Shown here piece after piece: positions 33,421 to 57,221 of a stretch of DNA of 64,000 nucleotides. The notes beneath the pieces are model-generated. The model had not been told where the DNA came from. It worked only from the letters and a program-made list of their open reading frames with translations, and ran no database searches. Position numbers and translations under genes: made by a program. The stretch is from contig NC_089443.1 in NCBI RefSeq assembly GCF_026210795.1, positions 3,844,001 through 3,908,000 on the forward strand, read 5' to 3'. Position 1 is the stretch's first letter. The number at the start of each line of letters is the position of its first letter. Source of the DNA: Rhizophagus irregularis (taxonomy: Eukaryota; Glomeromycota; Glomeromycetes; Glomerales; Glomeraceae).

Positions 33421-33664
33421 ATAAGTTAATAATTAACTTCTTATTTTCAGGTTTATAATATTTAGAAAGACTTGATATTATTTCAGGAGAAAGGAGAGAT
33501 AAAAGAGATGATGGGAGAGGAGGAGGTAAGTCAAATTGACTTGGCGAAGGAGGATGTTAAATTGTCGATGAGAATAAATTGAATTGACTTGGTGAAGGAG
33601 GTTTTTATTTTCAGTTGGATAATCTTGGAATGATATCATGATTTCACTTTGAATCTTATTTCCA

Positions 33665-35939: not shown

Positions 35940-36069
35940 TTGAGTTATTTGTGCTTTAATATTGTAACATTTTGAGCTATTTGTGCTTTAATATTGTAAC
36001 ACTTTGAGCTATTTGTGCTTTAATATTGTCACACAATAAATAACATTTGAGCCATTTGTGCTATAATTG
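35940..36069. repeat. 32-bp tandem repeat, about 3.5 copies
   Basis: TTGAGCTATTTGTGCTTTAA followed by TATTGTAACACT recurs at 35940, 35972 and 36004, exactly 32 bp apart, with a degenerate fourth copy near 36047. Confidence 0.8.
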
Positions 36070-37430: not shown

Positions 37431-38275
37431 ATTATTATTATTATAGTCTTTGTAATTCATTTTTATACCTAAAGATTTTAATGGAATCTTACGTGTATAT
37501 GATACACGTATGATTCCATTTCTCATGATGATCTGTGACTTGTACCAAACAATGTGCAAGACTGCTACAACGTGTCTTGTAAAATTAATATGTCCATTTA
37601 AGGTCTCCTTATTTTCCCGCGTAAAACAAGTTATTGTAAATTACAAAAAAAAAAAAAAGAAAGAAAAAAAAAACAAATAACAAATAAAAAAAAAAGGAAA
37701 AGAAGAGAAAAAAAAAAATTTATCCTTGTTTGACAATGTGATCTTTTTTTTTTTTTGAAATTAAAAATTAAATGAAAGGAAAAAAAAAAGATTGATCATC
37801 GGTCATTAATAAAAATTTCTTCTCCTCGATTCTCCTTAATAATATTAACAAATTTTAGAGCATAATAATTATACAAGAAACGTCATCAAAAGGAGAACTA
37901 TTTAATTAACTATAGAAAAAATGAAAAAATACTAAAAATAGTTATTTTAGAAATAATAAAAAAGTGGTATGAAAAATATTTACAGCTTAATCGTATAACG
38001 ATTGTACATGTATCATAGCACATGATTGCACAAGGGCAACGATATGCGAAAATGACTCAATGACTCTTCATTTTATTATGTCTCCCGGTTTAAGTAATTT
38101 TTCTTTGTGGGTTTTGATCTGCAAAGTACAAACTTTAAAATTATATGTATATATATTATTTACATCTAATCTATGTACCACGGGATCATGGGAACGTCTT
38201 TTTTTTTTTTAACCTTGTGGGTACACCGTGTACGTGTTTGATTCCCCGACTCGTTTTTTAAAATGAAAAATAAAG

Positions 38276-38287
38276 TATAAAAAGGCT
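38276..38287 (+). promoter_or_regulatory. TATA box of hemocyanin-like gene 1
   Basis: TATAAAAAGGCT, 359 bp before the ATG. The same word followed by (C/T)CAATTTTCCC(T/C) is kept upstream of all four paralogues, and a GATTCCC(C/T)GAC block precedes it. Confidence 0.6.
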
Positions 38288-38634
38288 CCAATTTTCCCCT
38301 CCAGAAAGTTTCCTCGTAATTCTACCAATCTTTTATTTTTTATAACAGAAAACTACTCAAACAACTCTTTTTTTTGTTATTATTTTTGATCGTTTAATTA
38401 CGTTTTTTTTTACTTGCAAATATTAAAAATATATATATATATATATATATATATTTTTCACAACCATTCATTCTCTTTTTTTTTTGACCGTTTCGCTACG
38501 GTTTCAAAAAATTTTTAATATTTGCAACATTTGCAACGATTTATTTTATTTTATTTTTTTCTTTTGTCACAAAAGAAATTTCAAATTTCAAATTACTCTT
38601 TGTTTCTTAAAAACTCAATCTTTTTATTGACAAA

Positions 38635-40832
38635 ATGTCTCTCGCTAAAGCAAGAAAAGGATTAAAGACTGAAAAGAAAGGTGGAAAAGTATCTCCTGAT
38701 CAAAAACTTCTCAACCAATTCTTTGAAACCCATGATAATCATAACAAGTCAGATAAAAATTTTAAATTCAGTCATGTATGTTAATAAATTTGATATAAAT
38801 ATATACGATTATTCGATGTCATTATCATAACTAATTTAAACCTTTTCTAACAGTTTCACCCTGGACATGCTGAGGATGCCTTTAAACTCTCTGCGGAATT
38901 TATGGAAATCGCAAACAAAAATCCTGATAATGCCATCGAGAAAGTTGTTGAACACGCGAATAAAGCATCTGAAACTTCGAATCTCGAATTAGTTCGTCAT
39001 GCTTTAATGATGTTTATTTCTCATCATCCGTCTGCTCGTAACAAAAATTTGCGTATTCCTCCATTGATTAAGCGTTCTCCTGGATCTACTGTTCCCAAGA
39101 AGAAGCAAGTTTCAACTGCTGAAAAATTTAAGGAAACTGAAGGTGAAAACCCTGAATTATACATGAATTGGTATAGAGAAGATCCTAATCTCAATGAGCA
39201 TCACGAGCATTGGCATATCGTTTATGGTGCTACTGGTGTACCTGATCTTGATAATCCTTTGACAAAACGTGTTCATAAGGATCGACATGGTGAATTGTTC
39301 GTTTATATGCATCGACAAATGCTGGCAAGATATGATATCGAACGTATTGGACTGGGTTTATCTTTGGTTAAACCTCTTGATGATTATTCTGCCCCAATTG
39401 AGGAAGGATATCATCCTAACGAAAATTTGGTTGATGCAGAAGATAGAAATGATCCTTACTCTACATTTGGTTCTCGTGATCATAAGAAACAACTTCGTAA
39501 TATTCCTAGTAGTAAGGATAAAACTGAAGAACTCAAAACTGAAGACATGCAGACATCTCGTGAAAAGATCGAAAAAGCTGTTAATTGTGGTAAATTTTAT
39601 AATGATACCAAGATCGATATTGATACGTTGGGCGCTGTTCTCGAATCTTATCAAAATGGCAATGTTGAACATTTGATTGAATATTATGGTCTTAAATATT
39701 ATGGTGATAATATAGGTTTACATGGAAGTGGTCACCTTATTATAGGAAACATAACTGATGATCCTGGTGTGATGTCTCAAACACGCGTTGCTGCACGTGA
39801 TCCGGCATTTTGGAGATGGCATCGTCATATAGATAATCTGGTCAAAACATGGGAAGAAAATCAAGAACCAAATGACTTTTCCAAATCACTACCTGTAAAA
39901 CTTCAAGATGTCATTCTTGTATTCAAAGATAAACTGCCTATACACCATGGAGAAACCCAAGATGAAGAAGCAGCTGAATTTGGTAAAAAATCATTTGGTG
40001 GAGAAAATTTTTGTAAGGACGTATCAAAAAATGATATTGTTACAAATGAATTAGAAACAAAAATGAAAACTAGAGTGTGGACACATATTGCAGATTCAGG
40101 ATCAACTGAGGAGATAGATTTTTTATTCCCTAGGGAATTTTATTATTATTTCCGTGTTGAAAATACTTCAGCAAGTGAATTTATAGCTACATTCCGCGTC
40201 TTTCTAGTACCAGAGGAATTAGCTGAATCAAGAGTTCATTGGATTGAATTAGATAAATTCAAAGAAAGTTTACCTGCTAATTCTAAAACGGTAGTATGCC
40301 GTGATTGTGATATGTCATCAATCGTACGTCAACCTCCGCAGAAAACCGATGATGAATTAGACGATACAGCTCTTCCGATTGATACTACTCCAGATGCAGA
40401 AGGAATTAATACTAATGACACATTTTGTGATTGTGGTTGGCCTTTCCATTTATTACTGCCCAGAGGAAGGAAAGGAGGAATGAAATTTAAATTGTTAGTA
40501 TTTATTTCCGATTGGTCTGAAGATAAAGTAGAAGTACCAAAAGAAAATATTAGGTGTGGAAGTATTAGTTTCTGCGGTGCTCAAAAGCCTGCTGATAAAT
40601 ATCCCGACAATAAACCCATGGGTTATCCACTTGATAGACCTTTCAAAAATAATTCTTATAAAGAGGTAAGTAAATTTGAAAATCTTTCGAAATTTTGTTA
40701 TGGAGAAATTAATTTTTATTAATTTTTACCTTATTAATTTCACAGACGTTTGCTGGATTAAACAATGCTGTTATTAAAGATGTTAGCATTAAATTGGTTA
40801 AAGACTTTCCTGAAATCGTCGAAGGCTGTTAA
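38635..40832 (+). CDS. Hemocyanin/prophenoloxidase-like type-3 copper protein, copy 1
   Basis: Three exons (38635-38775, 38854-40665, 40746-40832), 679 aa. The architecture is that of arthropod hemocyanin/prophenoloxidase, not of the common fungal tyrosinase. An all-helical N-domain comes first. The copper-A site follows, in NWYREDPNLNEHHEHWH (H164, H168) and GELFVYMHRQMLARYD (H200). The copper-B site is in GLHGSGHL (H337, H341) and DPAFWRWHRHID (H370). An Ig-like C-domain carries DCGWPFHLLLPRG, close to the GCGWPQHM-type motif of prophenoloxidases, and PMGYPLDRPF. All six copper ligands are present, so oxygen binding or phenol oxidation is plausible. No signal peptide (basic start MSLAKARKGLK). 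First of four tandem copies; the last exon begins TFAGLNN in all. Activity is inferred, not shown. Confidence 0.9.
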
Positions 40833-41964
40833 CTAACCCATTTTGTAAATATATAAATATTTATTTTTCATATTTTTTCTTATAAATAATTTGCATGACA
40901 CGATCGACCTTTAAAGTGTGATTTCCTACATTTAATTACTTTTCAAAACAGCAAAAACAGCAAAAACAGCAAAAAAAAAAAAAAAACAACTACTATTTAC
41001 TAAATTCTAAGCCCCAAGTTTTTTTTTTTTAAGATAATTTTTCGTTTCTTTTTAAGATTTATTGTTATGTATAGCGTTTTTTTTTTATGATTTGATTTTC
41101 TAAAAGCTAGCTTTTTGTATATATGAACATTCTATTTTATTTTATTTTTTTCATTGGACATTATTTTTTTTTTAAATTTTCGCATCATTTATTTTTTTAT
41201 TTTTTTTTTTTTTCAATTAAATATTTCAATTGAAAAATTATGTAATTATGTATTCCCAAAGAAGTTTTTGGCCAAAATTTTTTTTGGAACATTATGTAAT
41301 TTTCTTTTTTATTAATAAAAAATCATAGAAAAATTGCAAAAAAAAAAATTTTTTATAAAATATAACTTTGAACTACGTGAAATTTTTTTTTTTTTTGAAT
41401 TATCAAATGTTTCGTTTATTTGGAAATATCATAATTCTGATAAATCCAATTTCTTACAAAATTGAAGACATTCAATTGGATTTAGCATGATATAAATGAT
41501 CATCTATTTTATCGAAACAAACATTTTTACAGGTATATGATGATATTATAACGCAGCGACAGCATATTCGTGATGCGTGTGACAGATCAACGAAACTACA
41601 AAACATTATCCAAATAAAAAATCTTAGAGAGGTGACGCAACTGCCAAAAAAAAACGCACACAAAAAAGTTTTTTATTATTAACATTAGTAATGATAATAC
41701 ATGGGTCTCGTGATCTACCAGATGTAGTGCTAAGATTGCCCATGATCATCGACAATGCACACGTGGGGACGAGTGGTTTTATATATTAGAATAGTAGTAC
41801 TTATATGTATATTTCACGGCTTTTAATAATAGTTCTAATAAAAAAATAATAATAATGATAATACAGCTTTCTTAATCAATATTGAAATTTTATTTTTCCT
41901 GCACAATCAGATGCTTAGTTTATGCTATGCAACTCATAGTTAAAAAATATAATGACTTATTGAA
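40833..41964. other. Downstream flank of hemocyanin-like gene 1, with a relic exon-like ORF
   Basis: Homologous to 46539-47340. Poly(T)-rich sequence covers 40980-41400. At 41533-41682, after a TTTTACAG acceptor-like site, an open frame contains RQHIRDACDRSTKLQNI and ends in TAA. In the copy at 47075 an 8-bp insertion breaks it. It is possibly a relic exon of a lost gene. Confidence 0.35.
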
Positions 41965-42226
41965 GTCATTTCAGCGAAGGGACATTTCGCCGAAGATATG
42001 GAATTTATTAATTTTCCTTTTCTTTTTCAGAAGACAAATGGATTATTTGCATATTGTAAGTCGCGTTTGTTTAATTTTTTTAATCAAAGAAAAATTAATT
42101 TATTCGGTCTTACAATAAGTTCAAAAAAAAAAAACAAAATTCATAAATGGGAAAAGGATTAGGTGAGATGTCTTCAATAAAACGCCCATTAGGCGAAAAA
42201 TCCCTTCGGCGAAACGTACCGTAACC
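41965..42226. repeat. CGAA-motif repetitive element, remnant
   Basis: Begins with CATTTCAGCGAAGGGACATTTCGCCGAAG and ends CTTCGGCGAAACGTACCGTAACC. It is a shorter relative of 47355-47932. Confidence 0.5.
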
Positions 42227-42423
42227 ATTTTTTAAAGTTAGGTTAATTAAAAAAGATAACTCAAGTTGTTTAATTTTCGCCAAATAAAAATTTTATTCAG
42301 TGTTTTTTTTTATTCCATGTTATTTCCGGTAAATGTATCATATTCACGGAATTTATAGCCTCAATTATCCAAGTTGCTTAGATTTTTAGTTATTTTTACA
42401 GAAATTGTGGATAAAATTTTTTA

Positions 42424-42830
42424 CAGGGGGATACGGTAAGTTTAATCGAAACCAATTTCGCTGAGACCATTTTGTCCGTAATGAGATTTCGGAGGAGGCA
42501 TTTTCACTTAATGAAAATTTTGTTGAATCCTTTCCTTGAATGATCCATTTTTATCATTTTACTGAAAATGGTCATGATTGTGAATTTATACGAATTTTAA
42601 AAATTATCAATACATTTTTATGTTCAATTTTGTAATTCTTAATTAAGAGATCAATTAATTTATTCTACCATCATCAGTTTTTTAAAAAAAGAAAAATTAA
42701 AGTTATGTAGCAATTATATAAGTTACTTGAATGTTAAAATGATGTTGTTCCGAGAAAGGGTATCCGGACTTTTCGCCGAAGCCCTTTTCACCGAAACCCA
42801 TTTCGCCAAGCCAATTTCGCCGAAGGGATA
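42424..42830. repeat. CGAA-motif repetitive element, remnant
   Basis: Starts GGGGATACGGTAAG..AATTTCGCTGAGACC and ends with the TTTCGCCAAGCCAATTTCGC..GAAGG array. It corresponds to the left half of 48204-48938. Confidence 0.5.
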
Positions 42831-42880
42831 ATATTAAATATTTGGGTAGTATCTGAGTCACCTTCAAGTCTTGTATACCA

Positions 42881-43740
42881 GTAGCCATTCCTATGAAGAA
42901 TTCACTAACGTTTTCTTCCTATATTCTGAATATAAAGAATTGTTGAGAGCTGTGCAGGCATTAGAAATTAAAAATTAAATGTAAAATTTTTTAAAGAAAG
43001 GCGTATTTTTTTCGTCATGTGAGGAAAATCCAAAATACTGATAATTTTTTTTTTAAAAAAAAAAGAAAGAAAATTCGTCATATAGGAAAATCCAAAAAAC
43101 TGAATTTTTTTTTTAAAAAAAATGACGATTCCTAAAAAGACAATGATTTCTCGTGAAGAATTTCATTGTAAATTATTTTTATAGTTTAATTAAATTTTAC
43201 CTGATCGGATTAGTTGCTATAAATTTGTTATACGCCAATCATTATGCAGCCTATATGGCTATATTAGAGTATAACCTTTCACAATTGAGAATACAGAGCA
43301 TAATTTACTGGCTAATACTATATAATTATGCAATACTACAAAATTCTATAGTAACAACAATAGTAACAAAATATATTATTTTGATTATTTTATGATTTGC
43401 ACAGAATTTAAGTCATCCGAAATTTGACCACTAACATTAAAGTATTAATGTACTGATATGTGTTACATGAAAAAATTTAAAAAAATTTTGAACAATATAT
43501 TCGAAAATTTTGATATGTATACAGCAAAAAATACAGAGTTTTGCCAAAATCACGCTATACTGAACTCAGCTAGGCTATATAATTACCGCCTATATTGAGA
43601 TTAGGGCCTGCGCCATTCCAAATCCTATATAAAAATCTTACCACACCCTGTCACTATATAAATAGTACTTTAAACGTGTAGTACAGGTGACATATAATGC
43701 AATTTAAATCCACTTGCGGGTGGTCTGAACGTCAAGGATT
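42881..43740. other. Intergenic between hemocyanin-like genes 1 and 2
   Basis: AT-rich. An AAATTCGTCAT/GGAAAATCCAAAA repeat appears twice near 43010-43110. A short ORF at 43153-43395 has no recognisable features. No supported gene. Confidence 0.45.
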
Positions 43741-43997
43741 TTTTAAAGTATTCATTTAGATTTATTTTATAGATATAGATTATTTACATCTAATCTATGT
43801 ACTACGGGGGTCTCTTTTTTTTTAACCTTGGGAAAATTGGAAGCACTATTGGAAGCATCTTTGGAACTAATAAAGCCATTTAAGCCTTCCAACCAAATTT
43901 TTATGCGATTTATGCAATTGGAAGTACAAATGCACATCACTGCTTGTGTGTGCACCATGTTTGATTCCCCGACTCGTTTATAGAATGAAAAATAAAG

Positions 43998-44009
43998 TAT
44001 AAAAAGGCT
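43998..44009 (+). promoter_or_regulatory. TATA box of hemocyanin-like gene 2
   Basis: TATAAAAAGGCT, 367 bp before the ATG, within a block closely matching the gene 1 promoter. An insertion of about 110 bp (about 43828-43945) separates the upstream CTAATCTATGTAC block from the conserved GATTCCCCGACTCG. Confidence 0.6.
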
Positions 44010-44364
44010 CCAATTTTCCCCTCAAGAAAGTTTCCATAATTCTACCAATCTTTTATTTTTTAACAACAAACTACTCAAACAACTCTTTTTTGTTATTATT
44101 TTTGAACGTTTAATCACGTTTTTTTTTACTTGCAAATATTAAAATAATATATATATTTTTTTTTCACAGAAAAATTTACAATCATTCATTCTCTTTTTTT
44201 TTTGACCGTTTCGCTACGGTTTCAAAAAATTTTTAATATTTGCAACATTTGCAACGATTATTTTATTTTATTTTATTTATTTTTTTTTATCACAAAAGAA
44301 ATTTCAAATTTCAAACTTCAAACTACTCTTTATTTCTTAAAAACTCAATCTTTTTATTGACAAA

Positions 44365-46538
44365 ATGTCTCTCGCTAAAGCAAGAAAAGGATTAAAGACT
44401 GAAAAGAAAGGTGGAAAAGTATCTCCTGAACAAAAAATTCTCAACCAATTCTTGGAAGCCCCTAAAGATAAACATAAAAAGAAAGATAAAAAATTTAAAT
44501 TCACTCAAGTATGTTAATAAATTTGATATAATATATATGATTATTCGATGTTATTATCATAACTAATTTAAACCTTTTCTAACAGTTTGACCCTGAACAT
44601 GCTGATGCTGCCTATAATATCACTGTGGAATTTATGGAAATCGCTAACAAAAATCCTGAAAATGCCATCGAAAAAGTTATTGAATACGCGAAAAAAGCAT
44701 CTGAAACTTCGGATCCCGAATTAGTTCGTCATGCTTTAATGATGTTTGTTACTCATCATCCGTCTGCTCGTAACAAAAATTTGCGTATTCCTCCATTGAT
44801 TAAACGTTCTCCCGGAGCTACTGTTCCCAAGAAGAAGAACATTTCATTGGCTCCTGGTCCCCTGGTATCTACTCATTCTACTGAAAAGATTAAGGAAACT
44901 GAAGATAACCCTGAATTATATATGAATTGGTATAGAGAAGATCCTAATCTCAATGAGCATCACGAGCATTGGCATATCGTTTATGGTAGTAATGGTGTTC
45001 CTGATGTTAAGGATCCTAAAATCCGTGTTCATAAGGATCGACATGGTGAATTGTTCGTTTACATGCATCGACAAATGCTGGCAAGATATGATATCGAACG
45101 TCTTGGACTAGGTTTATCTTTGATTAAACCTCTTGATGATTATTTTGCCCCAATTGATGAAGGATATCATCCTAACGAAAATTTGGTTGATGCAGAAGAT
45201 GAAGATGATCCTTACTCTACTTTTGGTTCTCGTAAACCTGGGTCAAAAAATCGTGATTATGGTAAAAAAGATGGTCCTTTCACACTTAAAGCAATGGATG
45301 CAAATCGTAAAAAGGTCGAAGAAGCTGTTAATTGTGGTAAATTTTATAATGGTGCCGAGATCGATATTGATACGTTGGGCGCTGTTCTCGAATCTTATGG
45401 AAAAGGTGATTTGATTAAATATTATGGTAGTTTACATGCAGGTGGTCACCTTACTATAGGACACATAATTGATGATCCTGGTGTGATGGCTCAAACACGC
45501 GTTGCTGCACGTGATCCGGTATTTTGGAGATGGCATCGTCATATAGATAATCTGGTCAAAACATGGGAAGAAAAACGAGAACCGAATGACTTTTCCAATT
45601 CATCACCTGTAAAACTTCAAGATGTCATTTTTGTATTCAAAGATAAACTACCTATACACCATGGAGAAACCCAAGATGAAGAAGCAGCTGCATTTGGTGA
45701 AAAAACATTTGGTGGAAAAAATTTTTGTACGGACGTATCAAAAAATGATATTGTTACAAATGAATTAGAAACAAAAATGAAAACTAGAGTGTGGACACAT
45801 ATTTCAGATTCAGGATCAACTGAGGAGATAGATTATTTATTCCCTAGGGAATTTTATTATTATTTCCGTGTTGAAAATACTTCAGCAAGTGAATTTATAG
45901 CTACATTCCGCGTCTTTCTAGTACCAGAGGAATTAGCTGAATCAAGAGTTCATTGGATTGAATTAGATAAATTCAAAGAATGTTTACCTGCTAATTCTAA
46001 AACGGTAGTATGTCGTGATTGTGATATGTCATCAATCGTACGTCAACCTCCGCAGAAAACCGATGATGAATTAGACGATACAGCTCTTCCGATTGATACT
46101 ACTCCAGTAGATAATAATAATGACCGATTTTGTGATTGTGGTTGGCCTTTCCATTTATTACTTCCCAGAGGAAGGAAAGGAGGAATGAAATATAAATTAT
46201 TAGTATTTATTTCCGATTGGTCTGAAGATGAAGTACCAACAATAAGTAGATGTGGAAGTATTAGTTTTTGCGGTGCTGAAGGAGCGGCTGATAAATATCC
46301 CGACAAGAAACCCATGGGTTATCCACTTGATAGACCGTTCAAAAATAATTCTTATAAAGAGGTAAGTAAATTTGAAAATCTTTTCGAAATTTTGTTATGG
46401 AGAGGAATTAATTTTTATTAATTTTTACCTTATTAAATTTCACAGACGTTTGCTGGATTAAATAATGCTATTATTAGAGATGTTTGCATTAATTGGGTTG
46501 ATGAGTTTCCTGAAATCGTCGTTGAAGACAGCTGCTAA
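44365..46538 (+). CDS. Hemocyanin/prophenoloxidase-like type-3 copper protein, copy 2
   Basis: Exons 44365-44508, 44586-46361 and 46446-46538; 670 aa. Very close to copy 1 with the same intron positions and nearly the same intron sequence. It keeps EHHEHWH and FVYMHRQMLARYD (copper A), SLHAGGHL and DPVFWRWHRHID (copper B), DCGWPFHLLLPRG and PMGYPLDRPF. Differences cluster in the loop after PKKK (extra APGPLVSTHS) and in the acidic inter-copper loop (DEDDPYSTFGS, then KPGSKNRDYGKK). The Leu/Gly loop before copper B is shorter. Expected to be a functional copper protein; cytosolic unless released by an unconventional route, as no signal peptide is seen. Confidence 0.9.
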
Positions 46539-47354
46539 CCAAACCATTTTGTAAATATTTAAATATTTATTTTTCATATTTTTTCTTATAACAATTTGCA
46601 AAGTGTGATTTCCTACATTAAAAAAAAAAACTAAGTTTTTTTTTTTTAAAAGATCCTAAGATAATTTGATTTTCTAAAAGCTAGCTTTTTGTATATATGA
46701 ACATTATATTTTATTTTATTTTATTCATTGGACATTATTTTTTTTAAATTTTATTTATTTATTTATTTATTTCAATTAAATATTTCGATCGAAAAATTAT
46801 GTATTCCAAAAAAAGTTTTGGCCAAAATATTTTTTGGAACATTATGTAATTTTTTTCTTTTTTTATTAATAAAATCATAAAAAATTGCAAAAAAAAATTT
46901 TATAAAATATAACTTTGAACTACGTGAAATTTTTTTTTTTTTTGAATTATCAAATGTTCGTTTATTTGGAAATATCATAATTCTGATAAATCCAATTTCT
47001 TGCAAAACTGAAGACATTCAATTGGATTAGCATGATATAAATGATCTTTTATTTTATCAAAACAAACATTTTTACAGGTATATGATGAGTTGATGATATT
47101 ATAACGCAGCGACAGCATATTCGTGATGCGTGTGACAGATCAACGAAACCACAAAATATTATCCAAATAAAAAATCTGAGAGGTGATGCAACTGCTAAAA
47201 AAAAACGCACACAAAATGTTTAAATAGTTTTTTATTATTGGCATTAGTACATATAATGATGAATTAATGATAATACAGCTTCCCCAATAAATATTGAAAT
47301 TTTATTTTTCCTGCACAATCAGATGCTTAGTTATGCTACGCAACTCGTAGTTAA
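46539..47354. other. Downstream flank of hemocyanin-like gene 2
   Basis: Duplicate of 40833-41960 with deletions in the poly(T) tracts and an 8-bp insertion near 47089. No gene is seen. Confidence 0.5.
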
Positions 47355-47932
47355 ATATCCGGACTTTTCACCGAAGTTCGTCTAACCGAAACCCATTTCG
47401 CAAAGCAATTTCGCCGAAGAATGTTTCACCGAAGTGCCATTTCGCTGATATACCATTTCCCCGAATGGACATTTCCCCGAATGGCCATTTTACCGATTTC
47501 GCCGAAGCCATTTTACCTAAGGACATTTCGCCGAAGCCATTTCGACGAAGGGACATTTCGCCGAAGATAGGGAATTAATTAATTTTCCTTTTCTTTTTCA
47601 GAAGACAAACGGATTATTTACACACGTTTGTTTGATTTTTTTTAATTAAAGAAAATTAATTTATTCAGTCTTTACAGTAAGTTCAAAAAAAGATAACAAA
47701 TTCGTCGTACTCATCAATTCCGAAATATTTTTTATTTTCTTTGTATCGAATTGTTAATGATTAAGGAAATATATTAATCACTACCATTTTTGGCGAGGTG
47801 TCCTTCGACGAAATGGACGATTCAGGAAAAGGATTCGGCGAGTTGTCTTTGATGAAACTCCCTTCGGCGAGATGAGTTCAGTGAAATGGGTTTCGGCGAA
47901 ATGGACTTCGGCGAAACGTACCGTAACCATTT
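47355..47932. mobile_element. CGAA-motif element (fuller copy)
   Basis: The left part is an array of TTTCGCCGAAG / TTTCCCCGAATGG / TTCACCGAAG units (47368-47570). The right part is an array in the opposite orientation (CTTCGGCGAAACG, GGTTTCGGCGAAATGG; 47786-47925) that ends ACGTACCGTAACC. The inverted arrays flank an AT-rich core, a non-autonomous-transposon design like that at 10661-11230. Confidence 0.55.
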
Positions 47933-48203
47933 TTTAAAGTTAGGTTAATTAAAAAGATAAGTTTTTTTCACCCTATAAAAAATTTATTCAGTGTTTTTTT
48001 TTATTCCGGATTATTTCCGGTAAATCATATTCACGGAATTTATAGCTTCAAAACATGGAAATTATCCAAGTTGCTTAGATTTTTAGTTATTTTTCCGCAA
48101 ATGGATCATATCATATTCACGGAGTTTTTACAGAAATTATGGATAAAAAAATTTTTTACAAGGTTGAACTATTCAACGCTTATTATCTTATTATTTTTAC
48201 TGT

Positions 48204-48938
48204 ATAGGGATACGGTAGTTACGGTACGTTTCACCGAAACCAATTTCGCTGAAGCCATATGGTTCGTAATGAGGTTTCGCCGAGGAGACTGAATGGATAT
48301 TTTGTCGAATGGATATTTTGTCGAATCCTTTCCCTGAATGATCCATTTTTACCAATATGAATTTTAAAATTATCAATACATTTTTATTTCCAGTTTTGTA
48401 ATTCTCAATTAAGAGATCAATTAATTTATTCTATCATCATCAATTTTAAAAAAAAGAAAATTAAAGTTTGTTTTTATGTAACAATTATATAAGTTACTTG
48501 AATGTTAAAATGTCAGTGTTCCAAAAGGGTATTCGGACTTTTCGCGGGTTCTTTTCACCGAAACCCATTTCGCCAAGCCAATTTCGCCGAAGGGATGTTT
48601 CACCGAAGTGCCATTTCGCCGAGTGGGCATTTCGCTGAGAAGACAAACGAATTATTTAACACACTATATTAAGTCACGTTTGTTTAAAAAAAAGATAGTT
48701 TAAGAGGATTTGTACTTTGAGCATGAGTTGTTAATGATCAAGGAAATATGTTAATCACTCACATTTTCGACGAAATGTCCTTCGACGAAATGGACGATTC
48801 GGGGAAAAGGATTCGGCGAAATGTCCATTCAATGAAATGCACATTCGGCGAAATGTTCTTTCGGCGGAACTCCCTCGAAATGACTTCAGCGAAATGGTTT
48901 TCGGCGAAATGAACTTCGGTGAAACGTATCGTAACCCT
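48204..48938. mobile_element. CGAA-motif element with GGTTACGGTACGTTTC-type ends
   Basis: The left end is GTTACGGTACGTTTCACCGAA; the right end is TTCGGTGAAACGTATCGTAACC, the inverted version with one change. Inside are arrays of TTTCGCCGAA(G) at 48540-48640 and of its complement at 48775-48915. It is the best-bounded member of the family. Confidence 0.6.
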
Positions 48939-49039
48939 ACGAAAGAAAGATATTTTAAATAAAAATAGGTTATAAAAGAATTCATTCTTTAGAAATTATT
49001 CATTTTTTATCGAGCACATTGTAAAAATGTTGATCGCTA

Positions 49040-49142
49040 CCATTTCAGTCAGCGAAATGGCTTCGGTAAAGGCCTAAAGGGTCATTCGGCGAAATATTTA
49101 TTCGGCAAAATTGACTCCCGAGTGGTTACGGTACGTTTCACC
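49040..49142. repeat. CGAA-motif element, fragment
   Basis: CAGCGAAATGGCTTCGG, CATTCGGCGAAATATT and GGTTACGGTACGTTTCACC are present. It is the truncated start of another copy abutting the upstream region of gene 3. Confidence 0.5.
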
Positions 49143-49974
49143 TACATTATTATTTGTTTGTAATTTGTTTTCTTCTTCTACTGAAAGAATTCAAGGGAAT
49201 CTTACGTGCATACGATATCTTCCATGATGATTTGTGACTTGTGCCCAAACAATGAAACAATATGCAAGACCGATTCCAATTATTTTGTAAAACTAATATA
49301 TCCATTTAAGGTCTCTTTAACTTCACGCGTAAAAACGAGATTGTATTACCCAAAAAAAACAAATAAAAAAAAAGAAAAAAAATTAATCATCGGCATTAAT
49401 AAGATTTTCCCCGATTCTCCTTTGTATTAGTATATTAACAAATCTTAATAATTATGCAGGAAACAATTGTAACATTATCAAGAATAAGGTATATTGTGTA
49501 GATTGTTTTTGTATCATAGCACAATTAGCACATGGATCGGATAAATATATTTGCGAAAACGTCAATATGACTTAATCAGTTAATTAATATAAACAAAGAA
49601 AGTTTATCATTTTACGGTTTAAGTAATTATTATAAAAAAAAGAAAGGTATAACAAAATCTACAAAATCTATCATTTTATAATCTTTCCTTATTTTAGTAA
49701 TTAATTATTTATAATATTTCCTTGTTTAAGTAACTAATAATTTTTACAACATTTTCTTGTTTAAGTAATTAATATAACAAAAAATTTATCATTTATTATA
49801 TTTCCCTGTTTAAGTTTAAGTAATTTTGGTTTTTCGATTTACAAACTTTAATTTATTATTGCAATTCTTTACATCTAATCTATTATCACGGGAGCGTCTT
49901 TTTAGCCTTGCAGGTGCACCGTGCTTTGATTCCCTGACCTTTTTTTTTTTTGATTGAAAAATAAAGAAATAAAG

Positions 49975-49986
49975 TATAAAAAGGCT
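49975..49986 (+). promoter_or_regulatory. TATA box of hemocyanin-like gene 3
   Basis: TATAAAAAGGCT, 207 bp before the ATG. The leader is about 150 bp shorter than in genes 1 and 2. Confidence 0.6.
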
Positions 49987-50181
49987 TCAATTTTCCCTCA
50001 AGAAAGTTTTCCTTGTAGTTCTGCCAATCTTATATTTTCATAATAGCAAAACTACTTAACCAACCCTTAATATTTGTAACGATAATTAATTCTTGATAAT
50101 TGATTTTATTATTTTTTCTTTTATCACAAAGTTCAAACTACTCCTTTTTTTTCCTAAAAACTCAATTCTTTTATTGACAAA

Positions 50182-52310
50182 ATGTCTCTCGCTAAAGCAA
50201 GAAAAGGGTTAAAAACTGCCAAAAAAGGTGGAATATTAACTGATCAACAAAAATCTGTCAACGAATTCTTAAGAGTCCCTAAAAGTAACAAAACTAGCAG
50301 TAGATTCAGTCCAGTATGTTAATAAATTTGATATAATATATTCAATTAATTTTGATGATATTATCAAAACTAATTTAACCTTTTTTTAACAGTTTAACCG
50401 TGACCAAATTAGAGAAGCCTACAATTACTGTGCAAAATTTATGAAAATCGCTAACGAAAATCCTGATAATCCCATCGAGAAAGTTCTTGAGTATGCAAAT
50501 GAAGCAACTGAAACTACTGATCCTGAATTAATTCGTTATGCTTTAATGTCTTTTATTACCCATCATCCGTCTGCTCGTAATCGAAATTTGCGTATTCCTC
50601 CCTTAATTCAACGTTCTCCTGAATCATGCGTTCCCCAAAAGAAACCAGGTCCCGTAGTATCTGATGAAAAAGTTGGGGAATCTGAAGGCGACATTGAATA
50701 TGGCATGAATTGGTATAGAGAAGATCCTAATCTCAGTGAACATCACGAACATTGGCATATCGTTTATAGTGGTCAAGGTATTCCTGATTATAAAAATCCT
50801 GATATCCGTGTTAATAAAGATCGACATGGTGAACTGTTCGTTTACATGCATAGACAAATGCTGGCAAGATATGATATCGAACGTCTAGGAATGAATTTAC
50901 CTTTGATCAAACCTTTGGATAATTATCGTGCCCCAATTGAGGAAGGATATAAACCTAACACAAATTTGCGTGATCGAAATGATGAAAGTGTAGGTAAAAT
51001 TGATACATTTGGATCTCGTGAACCTAATTCAGCACTTAAGTTAAATAAAATCAATGAATTGGAAAAAAAACGTAAAGTGCTCGAAAAAGCTATCGAAATG
51101 GGTAAATTGACGGATGATATTGAGATCACTGTTGATCTATTGGGCGCTTTTGTTGAACCTTCCAATATTCCAGGAATACAGGAAATGGTTGATAAACAAG
51201 GTGGTTTACATGGCGACGGTCACGGTGCTATAGGAGACATAAATGACGATGACGATCCTGGTGTGATGACTCAAACACGCGTTGCTGTACGTGATCCGGC
51301 ATTTTGGAGATGGCATCGTCATATAGATAATCTGATCAATACATGGGAAGAAAAACAAGAACCGAATGACTTTTCCAATTCACCACCTGTAGGGCTTCAA
51401 GATATCATTCTTGTATTTAAAGATAAATTACCTATAAACCATGGAGAAACTCAAGATGATGAAGCAGCTGCATTTGGTGAAAAAACATTTGGTGGAGAAA
51501 ATTTTGATACGGATGTATCAGATAATAAGTATGTTACACATGAATTACAAACGAAAATGAAGTCCAGAATATTTGTGTATACTGAAGATTCACAATCACC
51601 CGAGAAGATAGATTATTTATACCCAAGGGAATTTTATTATTATTTCCGTGTTGAAAATACTTCATCATGTCAATTTGAAGCTACATTCCGCGTCTTTATA
51701 GTACCAGAGGAATTAGTTGAATCAAGATGTCATTGGATTGAATTAGATAAATTCAAAGAAAGTTTACCTCCCAATTCTAAAACGGTAGTATGTCGTGATT
51801 GTGATATGTCATCAATCGTACGTCAACCTCCGCAGAAAACCGAAGATGAATTAGATGATACAGCTCTTCCGACTGGTACTGGTACTACAGTAAATAAGCA
51901 TAAAAGCTATTGTGATTGTGGTTGGCCTTTCCATTTATTATTACCCAGAGGAAGGAGAGGAGGAATGAAATTTAAATTGTTAGTATTTATTTCCGATTGG
52001 TCTGAAGATGAAGTACCAAGAATAAGTAGATGTGGAAGTATTAGTTTCTGCGCTTCTGAAGCGTCTGAAAAATATCCCGATAAGAAACCTATGGGTTATC
52101 CATTTGATAGACCGTTCAAAAATAATTCCTATGAAGAGGTAAGGAAAGAAAAATATTTCGAAATGTTTGTCATGGAGAAGAATTAATTTTTATTAATTTT
52201 TATCTTATCAAATTTCACAGACGTTTGCTGGATTAAATAATGTTGTTATTAGAGATATTTGCATTAATTGGGTTGATGAATTTCCTGAAGTCGTCGTTGA
52301 AGGTTGCTAA
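50182..52310 (+). CDS. Hemocyanin/prophenoloxidase-like type-3 copper protein, copy 3
   Basis: Exons 50182-50313, 50393-52138 and 52221-52310; 655 aa. With copy 4 it forms a second subgroup. The start MSLAKARKGLKTAKKGGILT is shared, as is an inter-copper loop (NSALKLNKINELEKKRKV) unlike copies 1-2. Ligands are kept: EHHEHWH, FVYMHRQMLARYD, GLHGDGHG and DPAFWRWHRHID. The C-domain has DCGWPFHLLLPRG and PMGYPFDRPF; the latter is even closer to the arthropod PFDR form. The stretch just before copper B (GVMTQTRVAVRDPAFW) resembles copies 1-2 rather than its near-twin copy 4. Likely a functional copper oxidase or oxygen carrier. Confidence 0.9.
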
Positions 52311-52818
52311 CCAACCGTTTTGTAAATATAACTTAATAATGAACATAAATTTAGGAAATTTGTTAAATATTTATTTTCATTTTTAAGGTTATGATCATTT
52401 TGATTAGTAAGTCATCGTCTAAAAAAGTAAAGTGAATTTTCGTACAAAGACAAAATTATTAAAAAATTTTACAACTTTACTAAATATTTAATAAAAACGT
52501 TTATTTACAAGAAAAAAGTTATAAAATAGTATTTTCGAATGAACGAAACTACTATATATAAAAATGTGTAGTAACATATAACTGCTTAAAAAGCCCATTA
52601 TTCTATTAAAGTATGTAATATATTTACAAACTTCGTGCATGTATTAAGTATTATCAGTTATTCTCATAAGTTCATGCAGTTGTTATTTAGGTCGGTTATC
52701 TCATATTACTATGTATTAGCATAATAATAAAATTATTGAATAGTAACGGGAGTTTATTATAAAAATTGCATAAACGGTCCTAATATATAATTATTACTAG
52801 GAAATGGAAACCGATGTA
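52311..52818. other. Intergenic, 3' of hemocyanin-like gene 3
   Basis: The first ~200 bp match the region after gene 4 (57222-57420). The rest is AT-rich with no gene seen. Confidence 0.5.
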
Positions 52819-53158
52819 AGTCCGGAACGAAAGATTTGTACAAAAATCCAAATATCTTTAAAAATTCAATTTGTACAAAAAATCTGGCATCCCTAAAAAA
52901 ATAATAATAAAAAATGAAACGTTAGAAACGTTTCTTTAAGGTTAAACAAGTAAGAAAAGCCCTTACAATTTACCTTTAAAAGTCCGGCATGTACAAAAAA
53001 CCTGTGTTCCTAGATAAAAGAAAATAAAAATGAAACGCTAAAAACGTTTCTTTAAAGCAAAACAAATAAAAAACAACTCACCAGTCCGGTATGTACAAGA
53101 AATCCAGAAACCCTAGGAAAAAAATAAGAAAGTCGTTTAAAAGAAAAACATACTTACT
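52819..53158. repeat. Irregular tandem repeat with AGTCCGG..TGTACAA
   Basis: Copies start at 52819, 52981 and 53083. Each has AGTCCGG, a TGTACAA word, and AATCC/AACC, then A-rich sequence. The first two also carry ATGAAACG(T/C)(T/C)A...AACGTTTCTTTAA. No coding frame. Confidence 0.6.
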
Positions 53159-53218
53159 AGCCGAAATCTAAAAAAAAAAGGTAATAAACTTTTTTACTTG
53201 TTTATTTTTGATGTACAG

Positions 53219-53510
53219 TAGCCCTGTTCATTTCTAGATCGTATCGGATTGACCGAAAAAATGTATAACCAATCAGATCATAGTTACAATTGAGCACAAT
53301 TTTGATTGATCGGATTGGTTTATATATCCATAATAGCTTATAGGGCAAAAACACGTAGTTGTTGTTTATTATGTTTATTATAAAATCGATCAGGGAAAAA
53401 CACCAATTTTTGTAGATCGGCTTGACTGACCGCTGACCGCATCAGTAACCAATTATTTTGGGGTACAAATTTGCGATCAATCCGGTCCGATCTAGAAATG
53501 AACAGGGCTA
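53219..53510. mobile_element. 292-bp MITE with TAGCCCTGTTCATTTC ends
   Basis: The left end is TAGCCCTGTTCATTTCTAGA followed by TCG; the right end is the exact complement, and the next bases (ATCGGATTGA / TCAATCCGGT) also pair imperfectly. The interior repeats GATCGGATTGGTT-like words in both orientations. There is no coding capacity. A target duplication is not certain; the TAG..CCTG ends are hAT-like. Confidence 0.7.
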
Positions 53511-54893
53511 GTAGCACGAAATTATACACATTCTGTGCGGACCAATCAGAAATGACGCGTGCGGACAACCGGAAATCGCCACGTGACACTAATTGTCATC
53601 GACCTTCGTAAAATTATATAGTCCTTCGCTACGCTCCGGACAATAATAATACTAGGAAGTAAGTTCAAATTCATTGGATGACGTCACTTGAGGGACAGCT
53701 AATATCACGTGATCGATCATTTGGTGGCGCACTGTGCCGCAAAAAAAAAAAATTTATATAAACTTCCCTATTATTAGTTTTTTTTCCTGTAGGATCTTAA
53801 TTATGCATAACAATTGAAACATCCCCAAAAAGAGAAATCTTAACTTATTATTAACTATTATCTGTGGGAAAAAAATGTAAAATATTAAAAATAATTATTT
53901 AGAAATAAAAAGTAGATTGTTTATGTATTTGTAGCTAGGGATGGCAAAAAACATATTTTAAAACAATTTTGGCGGTTTAAAACATATTTTAAATAAGTTT
54001 TAAAACATTAAGCACTAGCCTTTATTACGTAATTCATATATATTTGCAATAAAAATTTAAGCATCTTATTGTATAGTATAATTTAAATCTTCTGGAAAAC
54101 TTTACATTTCATCAAATGATCTTTTAATCGATCAATTAAATCAATAATGTCATTTTCACAATAATTACACTTTTGGCGAGGTGTACTTCTGTAACTTTTT
54201 CAAAGTGCTTACGGACGTCTTCTGATGGTGGTCTTCCACGAGAAATAATTTTAAAAAAGCTGTTTTGCAAAGAGATCACTAAAGGTTGCTTAAAAACACA
54301 GAAAAGGGTTAAAATATAATTTACGCAATAATCATGCCGATCAATGTTTTAAACCTACTTAATAAAATCTTTTTTGAATGATACTAGATCACAACATGAT
54401 GCAAGAAACGGTAATAATATTAATTTTTTTTTATTTTACAATCTTAGACTCCAAAAAAAAAAAAAGTTTTTTAAATCAATAAAAAAAACTGATTCAAAAC
54501 ATCTTGCTTTAAATCACGTGCAATCCTAATCATACTGTAGCACATGGATCGGATAAATATATTGACGAAAACAGCAACATGTTATCGGTTAATTAGGTAT
54601 GACAAATCTAGCATTTTATAATATTTCCTTATTTTAGTAATTAGTTATTTAAAATAATTCCTTGTTTAAGTAACTAGTAATTTTTATAACATTTTCTTGT
54701 TTAAGTAATTAATATAAAAAAAAAAATTTATCATTTTATAATATTTCCTTGTTAAAGTAATTTGGTTTTTTTGATCTACAAACTTTAATTTATTATTGCA
54801 ATTCTTTACATCTAAATCTATGATCACAGGAGCGTCTTTTTAGCCGTGCATACTTTGATTCCCTGACCTTTTTTTTTAGATTGAAAAATAAAG
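53511..54893. other. Intergenic before hemocyanin-like gene 4
   Basis: A GC-richer patch at 53530-53645. From about 53760 the sequence matches the upstream regions of the other copies (CTATTATTAG, GCATAACAATTGAAAC; later CATGGATCGGATAAATAT, shared with 49531). About 54100-54420 looks inserted relative to gene 3. No gene is seen. Confidence 0.5.
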
Positions 54894-54905
54894 TATAAAA
54901 AGGCT
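54894..54905 (+). promoter_or_regulatory. TATA box of hemocyanin-like gene 4
   Basis: TATAAAAAGGCT, 208 bp before the ATG. The leader is almost identical to that of gene 3. Confidence 0.6.
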
Positions 54906-55101
54906 TCAATTTTCCCTCAAGAAAGTTTTCCTTGTAGTTCTGCCAATCTTATATTTTCATAATAGCAAAACTACTTAACCAACTCTTAATATTTGTAACG
55001 ATAATTAATTCTTGATAATTGATTTTATTATTTTTTCTTTTATCACAAAGTTCAAACTACTCCTTTTTTTTTCCTAAAAACTCAATCCTTTTATTGACAA
55101 A

Positions 55102-57221
55102 ATGTCTCTCGCTAAAGCAAGAAAAGGGTTAAAAACTGCCAAAAAAGGTGGAATATTAACTGATCAACAAAAATCTGTCAACGAATTCTTAAGAGTCCCT
55201 AAAAGTAACAAAACTAGCAGTGGATTCAGTCCAGTATGTTAATAAATTTGATATAATATATTCAATTTATTTTGATGATATTATCAAAACTAATTTAACC
55301 TTTTTTTAACAGTTTAACCGTGACCAAATTAGAGAAGCCTACAATTACTGTGCAAAATTTATGAAAATCGCTAACGAAAATCCTGATAATCCCATCGAGA
55401 AAGTTCTTGAGTATGCAAATGAAGCAACTGAAACTACTGATCCTGAATTAATTCGTTATGCTTTAATGTCTTTTATTACCCATCATCCGTCTGCTCGTAA
55501 TCGAAATTTGCGTATTCCTCCCTTAATTCAACGTTCTCCTGAATCATGCGTTCCCCAAAAGAAACCTGGTCCCGTAGTATCTGATGAAAAAGTTGGGGAA
55601 TCTGAAGGCGACATTGAATATGGCATGAATTGGTATAGAGAAGATCCTAATCTCAATGAACATCACGAACATTGGCATTTCGTTTATAATAGTGATGGTA
55701 TTCCTGATTATAAAAATCCTGATATCCGTATTAATAAAGATCGACATGGTGAACTGTTCGTTTACATGCATAGACAAATGCTGGCAAGATATGATATCGA
55801 ACGTCTAGGAATGAATTTACCTTTGATCAAACCTTTGGATAATTATCGTGCCCCAATTGAGGAAGGATATAAACCTAACACAAATTTGCGTGATCGAATT
55901 GATAAAAATGCAGATAAAATTGATACATTTGGATCTCGTGAACCTAATTCAGTACTTAAGTTTGATAAAATTAATGAATTGGAAAAAAAACGTAAAGTGC
56001 TCGAAAAAGCTATCGAAATGGGTAAATTGACGGATGATATTGAGATCACTATTGATCTATTGGGCGCTTTTGTTGAACCTTCCATTATTCCAGGAAAAGA
56101 GAAAATGGTTGATGAACAAGGTGGTTTACATGGAACCGGTCACGGTGCTATAGGACGCATAACTGACGATCGTGGTGTGATGCTTGATCCACGCACTGCT
56201 GCACGTGATTCGGTATTTTGGAGATGGCATCGTCATATAGATAATCTGATCAATACATGGGAAGAAAAACAAGAACCGAATGACTTTTCCAATTCACCAC
56301 CTGTAGGGCTTCAAGATATCATTCTTGTATTTAAAGATAAATTACCTATAAACCATGGAGAAACTCAAGATGATGAAGCAGCTGCATTTGGTGAAAAAAC
56401 TTTTGGTGGAGAAAATTTTGATACGGATGTATCAGATAATAAGTATGTTACACATGAATTACAAACGAAAATGAAGTCCAGAATATTTGTATATACTGAA
56501 GATTCGAAATCACACGAGAAGATAGATTATTTATTCCCGAGGGAATTTTATTATTATTTCCGTGTTGAAAATACTTCATCATGTCAATTTGAAGCTACAT
56601 TCCGCGTCTTTATAGTACCAGAGGAATTAGTTGAATCAAGATGTCATTGGATCGAATTAGATAAATTCAAAGAAAGTTTACCTCCTAATTCTAAAACGGT
56701 AGTATGTCGTGATTGTGATATGTCATCAATCGTACGTCAACCTCCGCAGAAAACCGTAGATGAATTAGATGATACAGCTCTTCCGACTGGTGCTGGTACT
56801 ACAGTAAATGAGAATAAAAACTATTGTGATTGTGGTTGGCCTTTCCATTTATTACTACCCAGAGGAAGAAGAGGAGGAATGAAATTTAAATTGTTAGTAT
56901 TTATTTCCGATTGGTCTGAAGATGAAGTACCAAGAATAAGTAGATGTGGAAGTATTAGTTTCTGCGCTTCTGAAGCGTCTGAAAAATATCCCGACAAGAA
57001 ACCTATGGGTTATCCATTTGATAGACCGTTCAAAAATAATTCCTATGAAGAGGTAAGGAAAGAAAAATATTTCGAAATTTTTGTCATGGAGAAGAATTAA
57101 TTTTTATTAATTTTTATCTTATCAAATTTCACAGACGTTTGCTGGATTAAATAATGTTGTTATTAGAGATATTTGCATTAATTGGGTTGATGAATTTCCT
57201 GAAGTCGTTGAAGACTGCTAA
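55102..57221 (+). CDS. Hemocyanin/prophenoloxidase-like type-3 copper protein, copy 4
   Basis: Exons 55102-55233, 55313-57052 and 57135-57221; 652 aa. Nearly identical to copy 3 through the promoter, exon 1, intron 1 and most of exon 2, so it is a recent duplicate. Copper ligands are intact (EHHEHWH, FVYMHRQMLARYD, GLHGTGHG, FWRWHRHID). The loop leading into the last copper-B ligand is distinct, GVMLDPRTAARDSVFW, against GVMTQTRVAVRDPAFW in copy 3. It has DCGWPFHLLLPRG and PMGYPFDRPF. No frame break. The localised change near the active site may alter substrate access (inference). Confidence 0.9.

What the first reader, a model, noticed from the sequence alone, without database searches (positions are those of the whole stretch)
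38635..57221. Four-gene tandem array of arthropod-type hemocyanin/prophenoloxidase-like proteins in a fungus
Seen directly: four intact genes with identical three-exon layout. Each has all six type-3 copper histidines in hemocyanin-type contexts (HHEHWH, FVYMHRQMLARYD, LHxxGH, FWRWHRHID) and a C-domain with CGWPFHLLLPRG, similar to the GCGWPQHM region of arthropod prophenoloxidases. Fungal phenol oxidation is usually ascribed to ordinary tyrosinases and laccases, so an expanded hemocyanin-type set without signal peptides suggests an under-described system for oxygen or phenol chemistry.
Basis: partly seen in the sequence, partly recalled or inferred. Interest (0 to 1): 0.85.

Follow-up and report, generated by a model that had tools for sequence, protein, structure and literature searches.

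The report
Fungal hemocyanin-type copper gene array
A fungus carries four side-by-side copies of a gene for a copper protein built like horseshoe-crab hemocyanin and insect prophenoloxidase; relatives of it also turn up, rarely, in bacteria, some of them beside or fused to a protease gene, which hints that protease-controlled phenoloxidases may be older than arthropods.

Summary
Four intact three-exon genes (38635-57221) encode 652-679-aa proteins with Hemocyanin_M and Hemocyanin_C far over cut-off and all six type-3 copper histidines. The AlphaFold2 model superposes on Limulus hemocyanin (VIA Z 33.9, rmsd 2.3, 491 residues). Two more members lie on other contigs; the only classical tyrosinase trace found is a decayed stretch.

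"Arthropod-type" misleads as an origin. Fungal beta-subclass (cytosolic, hemocyanin-type) proteins were described in 2013. In my tree the arthropod rows form their own clade, and array+arthropods is rejected (AU p 0.02). Bacterial relatives with intact sites exist in at least 14 of 84,980 species genomes and on Rhizobium plasmids, although that 2013 survey found only the alpha subclass in bacteria. Some sit beside or are fused to proteases (4 of 14 within 4 kb, 0.42 expected; families chosen post hoc), one in a subtilase-MBL-hemocyanin row near a Shedu gene.

The youngest fungal pair has 37 nonsynonymous and 2 synonymous differences in its catalytic block but keeps all ligands; the other pair does not show this contrast clearly. 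Best reading: latent intracellular phenoloxidases, perhaps diverging in substrate. Chemistry, expression and physiology are untested.

The parts
38635..38775 (+). gene 1 exon 1 (47 aa, Lys-rich N-terminal tail)
   Evidence: gene model
38854..40665 (+). gene 1 exon 2: N domain, Hemocyanin_M, Hemocyanin_C
40746..40832 (+). gene 1 exon 3
44365..44508 (+). gene 2 exon 1
44586..46361 (+). gene 2 exon 2; ligands are residues H126, H130, H161, H284, H288, H317 of this exon (codons start at 44961, 44973, 45066, 45435, 45447, 45534); first residue F is at the placeholder position (Limulus 49)
   Evidence: structural alignment range starts at model residue 1 = Limulus 49
46446..46538 (+). gene 2 exon 3
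50182..50313 (+). gene 3 exon 1
50393..52138 (+). gene 3 exon 2
52221..52310 (+). gene 3 exon 3
55102..55233 (+). gene 4 exon 1
55313..57052 (+). gene 4 exon 2
57135..57221 (+). gene 4 exon 3
49664..52633 (+). duplicated block holding gene 3; 93.3% identical to 54604-57557 (gene 4)
   Evidence: blastn of the window on itself
38235..42829 (+). duplicated block holding gene 1 and downstream intergenic DNA; matches 43958-48596 (gene 2) in separate pieces at 84-90%

Best explanation
The array encodes intracellular, latent (gated) beta-subclass type-3 copper phenoloxidases. Each subunit has the three-domain arthropod hemocyanin/prophenoloxidase fold: an N domain whose placeholder Phe sits over the copper pair, a helical dicopper domain, and a beta-rich C domain. 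Shown: fold, complete ligand set, the Glu that is catalytic in mosquito PPO8, the placeholder Phe, tandem duplication, and amino-acid change concentrated in the catalytic block of the youngest pair. Inferred: the protein binds two coppers and O2, oxidises o-diphenols (perhaps monophenols) to quinones once the gate opens by a protease, damage or another trigger, and the copies are diverging in substrate preference. The setting I think most likely is quinone or melanin chemistry released in damaged or ageing hyphae or spores; nothing here tests that. Family origin: an old, patchily distributed family shared with bacteria, not a gene taken from an arthropod.
For: Pfam domains. PDB sequence relatives led by Limulus hemocyanin II, E 1.6e-64. 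AlphaFold2 model pLDDT 80.9, pTM 0.86. Foldseek's best hits are hemocyanins and PPOs; VIA Z 33.9, rmsd 2.3, 491 residues with 1oxy and about 30 with insect PPOs, against about 10-11 for alpha tyrosinases. Six His and four C-domain cysteines in 6 of 6 fungal and 14 of 14 bacterial rows; Glu at the LGxxxE column in 4 of 4 array rows and 14 of 14 bacterial rows; placeholder Phe in 4 of 4 array rows and 14 of 14 bacterial rows. The AgPPO8 residue in this segment is Glu364 by numbering, and its mutation severely impaired both activities (PMC4700666, passages). Gene 3 vs 4: 37 nonsynonymous, 2 synonymous differences in the catalytic block, 10 and 11 in the rest, Fisher p 5e-5; against neutrality P 0.008.
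Against: No activity, metal content or expression was measured. Limulus hemocyanin has the same ligands and Glu and starts the structural alignment at the same Phe position, so sequence does not separate oxygen carrier from oxidase. Overall dN/dS of the two young pairs is near 1 (0.73-1.22 by method), which also fits relaxed constraint. The catalytic-block test is post hoc: for genes 3/4 the narrower loop+CuB-front region alone gives P 0.059, and for genes 1/2 block against rest is not significant (Fisher p 0.23; block P 0.056; loop+CuB front P 0.034). The same PPO8 paper argues that the placeholder Phe need not move for activation, so gating by it is uncertain. Copper coordination was not measured on the model: ligands were checked by alignment, not by distances.
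Confidence: 0.58

Rival explanations
1. Oxygen carrier or store: a fungal hemocyanin that binds O2 reversibly inside long hyphae.
For: Closest solved relative by sequence and fold is Limulus hemocyanin; placeholder Phe conserved in the array.
Against: Aguilera 2013 has oxygen-carrying arthropod hemocyanins evolve from a beta-subclass tyrosinase, and the array lies outside the arthropod clade. Fast change around the active site of the youngest pair would be odd for a carrier. No secretion signal seen (by eye).
Confidence: 0.1
2. Non-oxidative or single-metal biosynthetic enzyme like AsqI, the zinc cyclopenase of Aspergillus.
For: The fungal protein of this fold with a solved structure is such an enzyme (PMC6053404); fast active-site change fits new substrates.
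Against: AsqI has lost copper site B (His346, Leu350, Tyr387), whereas the six fungal genes here keep both sites. No biosynthetic cluster among 10 window ORFs scanned, which gave part of a dihydroxy-acid dehydratase, an RTA1-like protein and a WD40-like piece; other window genes, split by introns, were not scanned.
Confidence: 0.17
3. Acquired from an arthropod by horizontal transfer, as the word arthropod-type suggests.
For: High similarity to chelicerate hemocyanin.
Against: Six arthropod rows form one clade with 100/100 support that excludes the fungal genes; array+arthropods held together is rejected, AU p 0.0197. The best bacterial row is as close to gene 2 (39.0%) as the chelicerate rows (38.3 and 36.4%). 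Fungi other than AsqI and crustaceans were not in the tree.
Confidence: 0.04
4. Acquired from a bacterium by horizontal transfer, rather than inherited from an early eukaryote.
For: Without AsqI the six fungal genes sit beside the Brevibacillus and a Chloroflexi row (83/93 and 81/92); bacterial relatives exist.
Against: Those supports are below the reliable level, and holding fungal+arthropod rows together is not rejected (p 0.328). With AsqI included the seven fungal rows lie on one side of a branch and bacteria+arthropods on the other (82/80). Aguilera 2013 infers vertical descent in unikonts.
Confidence: 0.35

Closest known systems
[quoted passage not shown] 2013, PMC3658974; passages and section 5 read)
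   Same: No signal peptide seen, Phe placeholder, CuA spacing unlike the alpha subclass; fungal members already listed there
   Different: Its Table 1 lists no disulfide bridges for fungal members; here the four C-domain cysteines that align with arthropod ones are kept in 6 of 6 (bonding not shown). It found only the alpha subclass in the bacterial genomes it examined; bacterial relatives are shown here
Chelicerate hemocyanin (Limulus subunit II, 1oxy/1lla)
   Same: Three-domain fold, six His, Phe49 position, CGWP segment
   Different: Secreted oxygen carrier (recalled); separate clade
Insect prophenoloxidase (3hhs, 4yzw, 8jib)
   Same: Fold, catalytic-type Glu, C-domain cysteines, ligands
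   Different: No activating cleavage shown for the fungal proteins; separate clade
AsqI / PngL cyclopenase-type proteins (5yy2, PMC6053404; passages read)
   Same: Fungal, same overall fold (Z 27.6)
   Different: AsqI lost site B and is a zinc Lewis-acid enzyme; long branch
Bacterial pro-nuclease/protease pairs and canu (Tuck et al. 2025, PMC12799240; abstract, introduction and passages read)
   Same: A proenzyme beside its protease; an MBL protein and a protease stand beside the Rhizobium hemocyanin-type gene
   Different: Its text has no occurrence of hemocyanin, tyrosinase or prophenoloxidase

Membership tests
[quoted passage not shown]
   4 of 4
[quoted passage not shown]
   6 of 6 fungal rows
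[quoted passage not shown]
   array 4 of 4; the two dispersed paralogues have Leu in that column, but their N-terminal alignment is unsure
[quoted passage not shown]
   N terminus read by eye; no predictor or localisation data
Arthropod hemocyanin/PPO clade | Falls inside the arthropod clade | tested here: not met
   arthropods one clade 100/100; array+arthropods AU p 0.0197
Arthropod hemocyanin | Reversible O2 binding, hexamer | not testable with these tools
   needs protein
Prophenoloxidase | Glu of the LGxxxE segment (AgPPO8 Glu364) | tested here: met
   array 4 of 4. In the two paralogues the alignment puts a different Glu in the column than the one in their own LGxxxE (LGGDIE, LGSDIE), so there it is unsure. 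Role from PMC4700666
Prophenoloxidase | Proteolytic activation and phenol oxidation | not testable with these tools
   needs protein
AsqI-type cyclopenase | Site B lost, one zinc at site A | tested here: not met
   site B histidines kept in 6 of 6; metal not tested
Alpha-subclass tyrosinase | CuA pattern H1(n)-H2(8)-H3 | tested here: not met
   gene 2 CuA His at exon-2 residues 126, 130, 161; pattern
Bacterial protease-proenzyme conflict module (for the bacterial relatives only) | Protease gene beside or fused to the proenzyme gene | tested here: inconclusive
   within 4 kb in 4 of 14 loci plus the Rhizobium plasmids; 10 of 14 have none of the three families; families chosen post hoc
Bacterial protease-proenzyme conflict module (for the bacterial relatives only) | Anti-phage activity | not tested
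   no assay; a nearby Shedu gene, a LmuA-like MBL gene and, at another locus, a restriction-enzyme gene are circumstantial

The most novel reading that the evidence does not exclude
Bacteria hold a rare, mobile immune module in which a complete prophenoloxidase-like proenzyme is paired with, or fused to, its activating protease (subtilase, trypsin-like, caspase-like or CHAT). The protease-triggered phenoloxidase logic of arthropod immunity is therefore older than animals. The fungal array is a eukaryotic offshoot of that family, rebuilt as a tandem set whose active sites are diversifying.
Probability: 0.27. Interest if true: 0.92.

Novelty: new variant of a known kind. Interest (0 to 1): 0.62.

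Why it matters
Arthropod phenoloxidase and hemocyanin are textbook proteins. Complete three-domain relatives with intact copper sites in bacteria, some beside proteases, extend the beta subclass beyond the eukaryotes it was reported from in 2013, give material to root the family, and make testable whether protease-gated phenol oxidation began as bacterial immunity. For fungal biology, the array is a set of candidate latent phenol oxidases in a genome where the only classical tyrosinase trace found here is decayed.

Tried and rejected
Viral contigs gave no relative; phage records gave none; plasmid searches with two further queries returned only the same two Rhizobium plasmids. NCBIfam gave only tyrosinase-type hits far below cut-off. 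The N domain alone finds PDB relatives only weakly (AsqI E 0.015, below two designed proteins). PADLOC has no hit for the Rhizobium hemocyanin-type protein. Papers: five exact phrases on bacterial hemocyanin or prophenoloxidase gave 0 papers; searches joining type-3 copper and conflict-system terms gave 7 and 3 papers, of which I looked into three for my terms: PMC8195603 and PMC10907252 and PMC12799240 (one search counts) have none of hemocyanin or tyrosinase. Hemocyanin with Rhizophagus: 2 papers, judged from the listing only. Searches were read as listings apart from the papers named in this report. PMC4219462 and PMC12387763 (passages) concern tyrosinases of other fungi. PMC10234402 has no occurrence of tyrosinase or hemocyanin in its main text. 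All this covers only the held open-licence library; supplements were not searched. Four samples of further genomes found no bacterial carrier beyond those, so I have no independent loci for the protease test. Gene conversion from a diverged copy as cause of the gene 3/4 block is disfavoured because silent differences there are few (2 over 126 synonymous sites). AsqI's long branch makes less safe. A 5' leader fold was not notable (z -1.06). Alpha tyrosinase: only a stretch on C3 with 7 stop codons in the match; an intact one split by introns could be missed.
Full report
What is there. Four genes in tandem, same strand, starts 5.7, 5.8 and 4.9 kb apart, each with a short first exon, one long exon and a short last exon, GT..AG introns at the same two places. 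The products are 679, 670, 655 and 652 aa. Hemocyanin_M and Hemocyanin_C are far over cut-off in 4 of 4, and the tyrosinase profile is matched too. Genes 1/2 are 82% and genes 3/4 94% identical; the two pairs share 67-70%. The duplicated blocks extend into flanking DNA, for example 49664-52633 against 54604-57557 at 93.3%. The window lies in a 146.7-Mb, 32-contig assembly. That agrees with Rhizophagus irregularis (32 scaffolds in PMC10234402, passages), but no tool names the organism.

The rest of the family in this genome. PF00372 and PF03723 each find six places: the four genes and one locus each on C18 and C10. The two dispersed genes are 92% identical to each other and 36-39% to the array. 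I read them as six exons, with no intron shared with the array by reading the two sets of models, and they have no Phe in the placeholder column. PF00264 finds the four array genes, the C18 gene and one stretch on C3 whose match holds 7 stops; the C10 gene was not listed. The C3 frames, read as they are, show fungal-tyrosinase-like pieces such as HHCNVDRL (likeness recalled), so it looks like a decayed alpha tyrosinase. Cu-oxidase gives 21 exon-level matches, so multicopper oxidases are present.

Fold and site. The best PDB sequence relative is Limulus hemocyanin II (E 1.6e-64), then scorpion hemocyanin and insect phenoloxidases; AsqI is far weaker (1.3e-27). An AlphaFold2 model of gene 2 exon 2, from 4 fungal and 12 of the 14 bacterial rows (A2), has pLDDT 80.9 and pTM 0.86. 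Foldseek ranks Limulus hemocyanin first; its 46 matches at E <= 0.001 are hemocyanins, PPOs, AsqI and hexamerin-type storage proteins. VIA gives Z 33.9, rmsd 2.3 over 491 residues for 1oxy, about 30 for PPOs, 27.6 for AsqI and 10-11 for alpha tyrosinases. The 1oxy alignment starts with model residue 1 (Phe) at Limulus residue 49, the placeholder position (name for Limulus recalled). Six His and four C-domain Cys are in 6 of 6 fungal and 14 of 14 bacterial rows; Glu at the LGxxxE column is in 4 of 4 array and 14 of 14 bacterial rows, and is ambiguous in the two paralogues. In mosquito PPO8 this residue is Glu364 by numbering, and its mutation severely impaired both activities (PMC4700666, passages). 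AsqI has lost site B (PMC6053404, passages). Ligand distances were not measured.

Relatives in bacteria. A scan of 84,980 species genomes with A1, by two peptide patterns confirmed by tblastn, found 14 distinct loci encoding relatives at 31-38% identity over most of the query. It is a lower bound, since members without an exact pattern match are missed. They fall in Chloroflexota, Cyanobacteriota, Bacillota, Pseudomonadota, Acidobacteriota, Bacteroidota, Planctomycetota and Actinomycetota. Five records not labelled MAG (L010, L012, L016, L021, L022) lie on contigs of 177-967 kb, so contamination is unlikely for those. Two Rhizobium indicum plasmids carry another: one as an annotated 'tyrosinase family protein' gene, the other annotated only in part. 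PF00372 rings in 14 of 14 of these genomes at 62-155 bits and in 0 of 14 control genomes. Sampled groups give 2 of 292, 1 of 349, 2 of 397 and 1 of 392 genomes. Each count includes the genome used as centre and no genome new, so without centres they are 1, 0, 1 and 0: the gene is rare and patchy. Aguilera 2013 states that only the alpha subclass was present in the bacterial genomes examined. My searches of the held library named no paper on bacterial hemocyanin-type proteins.

Tree. With 26 rows (AsqI left out) the six fungal genes are one clade (100/99), the six arthropod rows one clade (100/100), and array+arthropods is rejected (AU p 0.0197). Fungal+arthropod against bacteria is not rejected (p 0.328). 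With AsqI (27 rows, a very long branch) the seven fungal rows lie on one side of an 82/80 branch. So an arthropod donor is unlikely, while descent from an early eukaryote and transfer from bacteria both remain open. The PDB rows are retyped and partial, half of the inner branches are weak (12 of 24 open), and crustaceans and other fungi are missing.

Protease neighbours of the bacterial genes. L018: one 1158-aa open frame with Peptidase_S8 and the hemocyanin domains. L010: S8 gene 1.2 kb upstream. L014: Trypsin_2 gene about 0.1 kb upstream. L015: caspase-domain gene 0.65 kb downstream (E 2.4e-8). Weaker: L019, two genes upstream with CHAT matches below cut-off (E 1.9e-4 and 0.016); L011, an Endonuclease_NS protein with a trypsin match below cut-off (E 0.027); HExxH motifs, by eye only, in upstream genes of L015 and L021. 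Rhizobium: S8, MBL and hemocyanin-type genes in a row (4-base overlap, then 114 bases), the MBL matching PADLOC LmuA (8.5e-44), with SduA (4.6e-138) nearby. Pfam was run on 33 of 87 neighbouring ORFs of the 14 loci; L009, L012, L013, L016, L017, L020 and L022 gave no protease match in what was scanned. As a control I counted S8, Trypsin_2 and C14 in the 14 genomes: 88, 128 and 20 matches in 66.6 Mb. A match within 4 kb is expected at 0.42 of 14 loci; 4 of 14 have one (L010, L014, L015, L018), P 0.0006, and 10 of 14 have none. The three families were chosen after some neighbours had been seen, so this P is optimistic. The Rhizobium locus was examined after the idea arose and fits it. Tuck et al. 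2025 (PMC12799240; abstract and passages) show bacterial pro-nucleases activated by partner proteases, a working precedent.

Evolution of the array. dN/dS of the six pairs is 0.52-1.22 depending on method and pair. For genes 3/4 the catalytic block (alignment columns 161-388) has 37 nonsynonymous and 2 synonymous differences (against neutrality P 0.008), the rest 10 and 11 (Fisher p 5e-5); the narrower loop and CuB front alone give P 0.059. Of 44 differing columns 33 lie in the block and none is a ligand. For genes 1/2 the loop and CuB front show pN 0.195 and pS 0.081 (P 0.034), but the whole block gives P 0.056 and block against rest p 0.23. Regions were chosen after looking, and no correction was made for several tests. 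Reading: copper binding is kept while the surroundings of the site change, as expected if copies are gaining different substrates; relaxed constraint is the alternative.

Mechanism, with likelihoods. Latent intracellular phenoloxidase 0.58; AsqI-like biosynthetic enzyme 0.17; oxygen carrier 0.10. The step from sequence to oxidase is inference from the family. The trigger (protease, wounding, ageing) is a guess drawn from arthropod PPO and from the bacterial neighbourhoods; the PPO8 paper doubts that the placeholder Phe must move. No protease was seen among the 10 window ORFs scanned (the window was not fully annotated), so any activation in the fungus would probably act in trans.

Verdict. The fungal genes themselves are new members of a known subclass; the newer elements are the bacterial branch with complete sites, its partial protease company, and the focused change in the youngest fungal copies.

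Noticed in passing
L018:1-3474: One open frame joins a subtilase (Peptidase_S8) to a hemocyanin-type protein in a Chloroflexi MAG.
   Followed up: partly
L026:8165-13665 (Rhizobium indicum plasmid pPR13E04): Row of subtilase, MBL protein (LmuA-like) and hemocyanin-type gene, next to a Shedu gene and kinase/phosphatase genes on a plasmid typed as conjugative.
   Followed up: partly
L013:3887-4282: A stand-alone stretch resembling the hemocyanin N domain (by eye; no Pfam hit) overlaps the start of the full gene by 4 bases in Desmonostoc; a possible regulatory or gating subunit.
   Followed up: no
L030 (G000:C3:4387746-4388015, minus): Decayed alpha-type tyrosinase stretch with several stops, the only classical tyrosinase sign found in this genome.
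   Followed up: partly
L008 (C10 paralogue): Tyr replaces the non-ligand first His of the HHEHWH motif; the ligand His are kept.
   Followed up: no
window 247-9948: Two similar minus-strand sets of WD40-like and multi-helix proteins look, by eye, like another tandem duplication; similar WD40-like pieces recur at 61139-61981.
   Followed up: no
L021:957-7656: The Sandaracinobacteroides hemocyanin-type gene lies near an MvaI/BcnI-type restriction-enzyme gene and directly before a flavin amine-oxidase gene.
   Followed up: no
window 24001-36000: GC skew switches from -0.28 to +0.36 without a clear cause.
   Followed up: no
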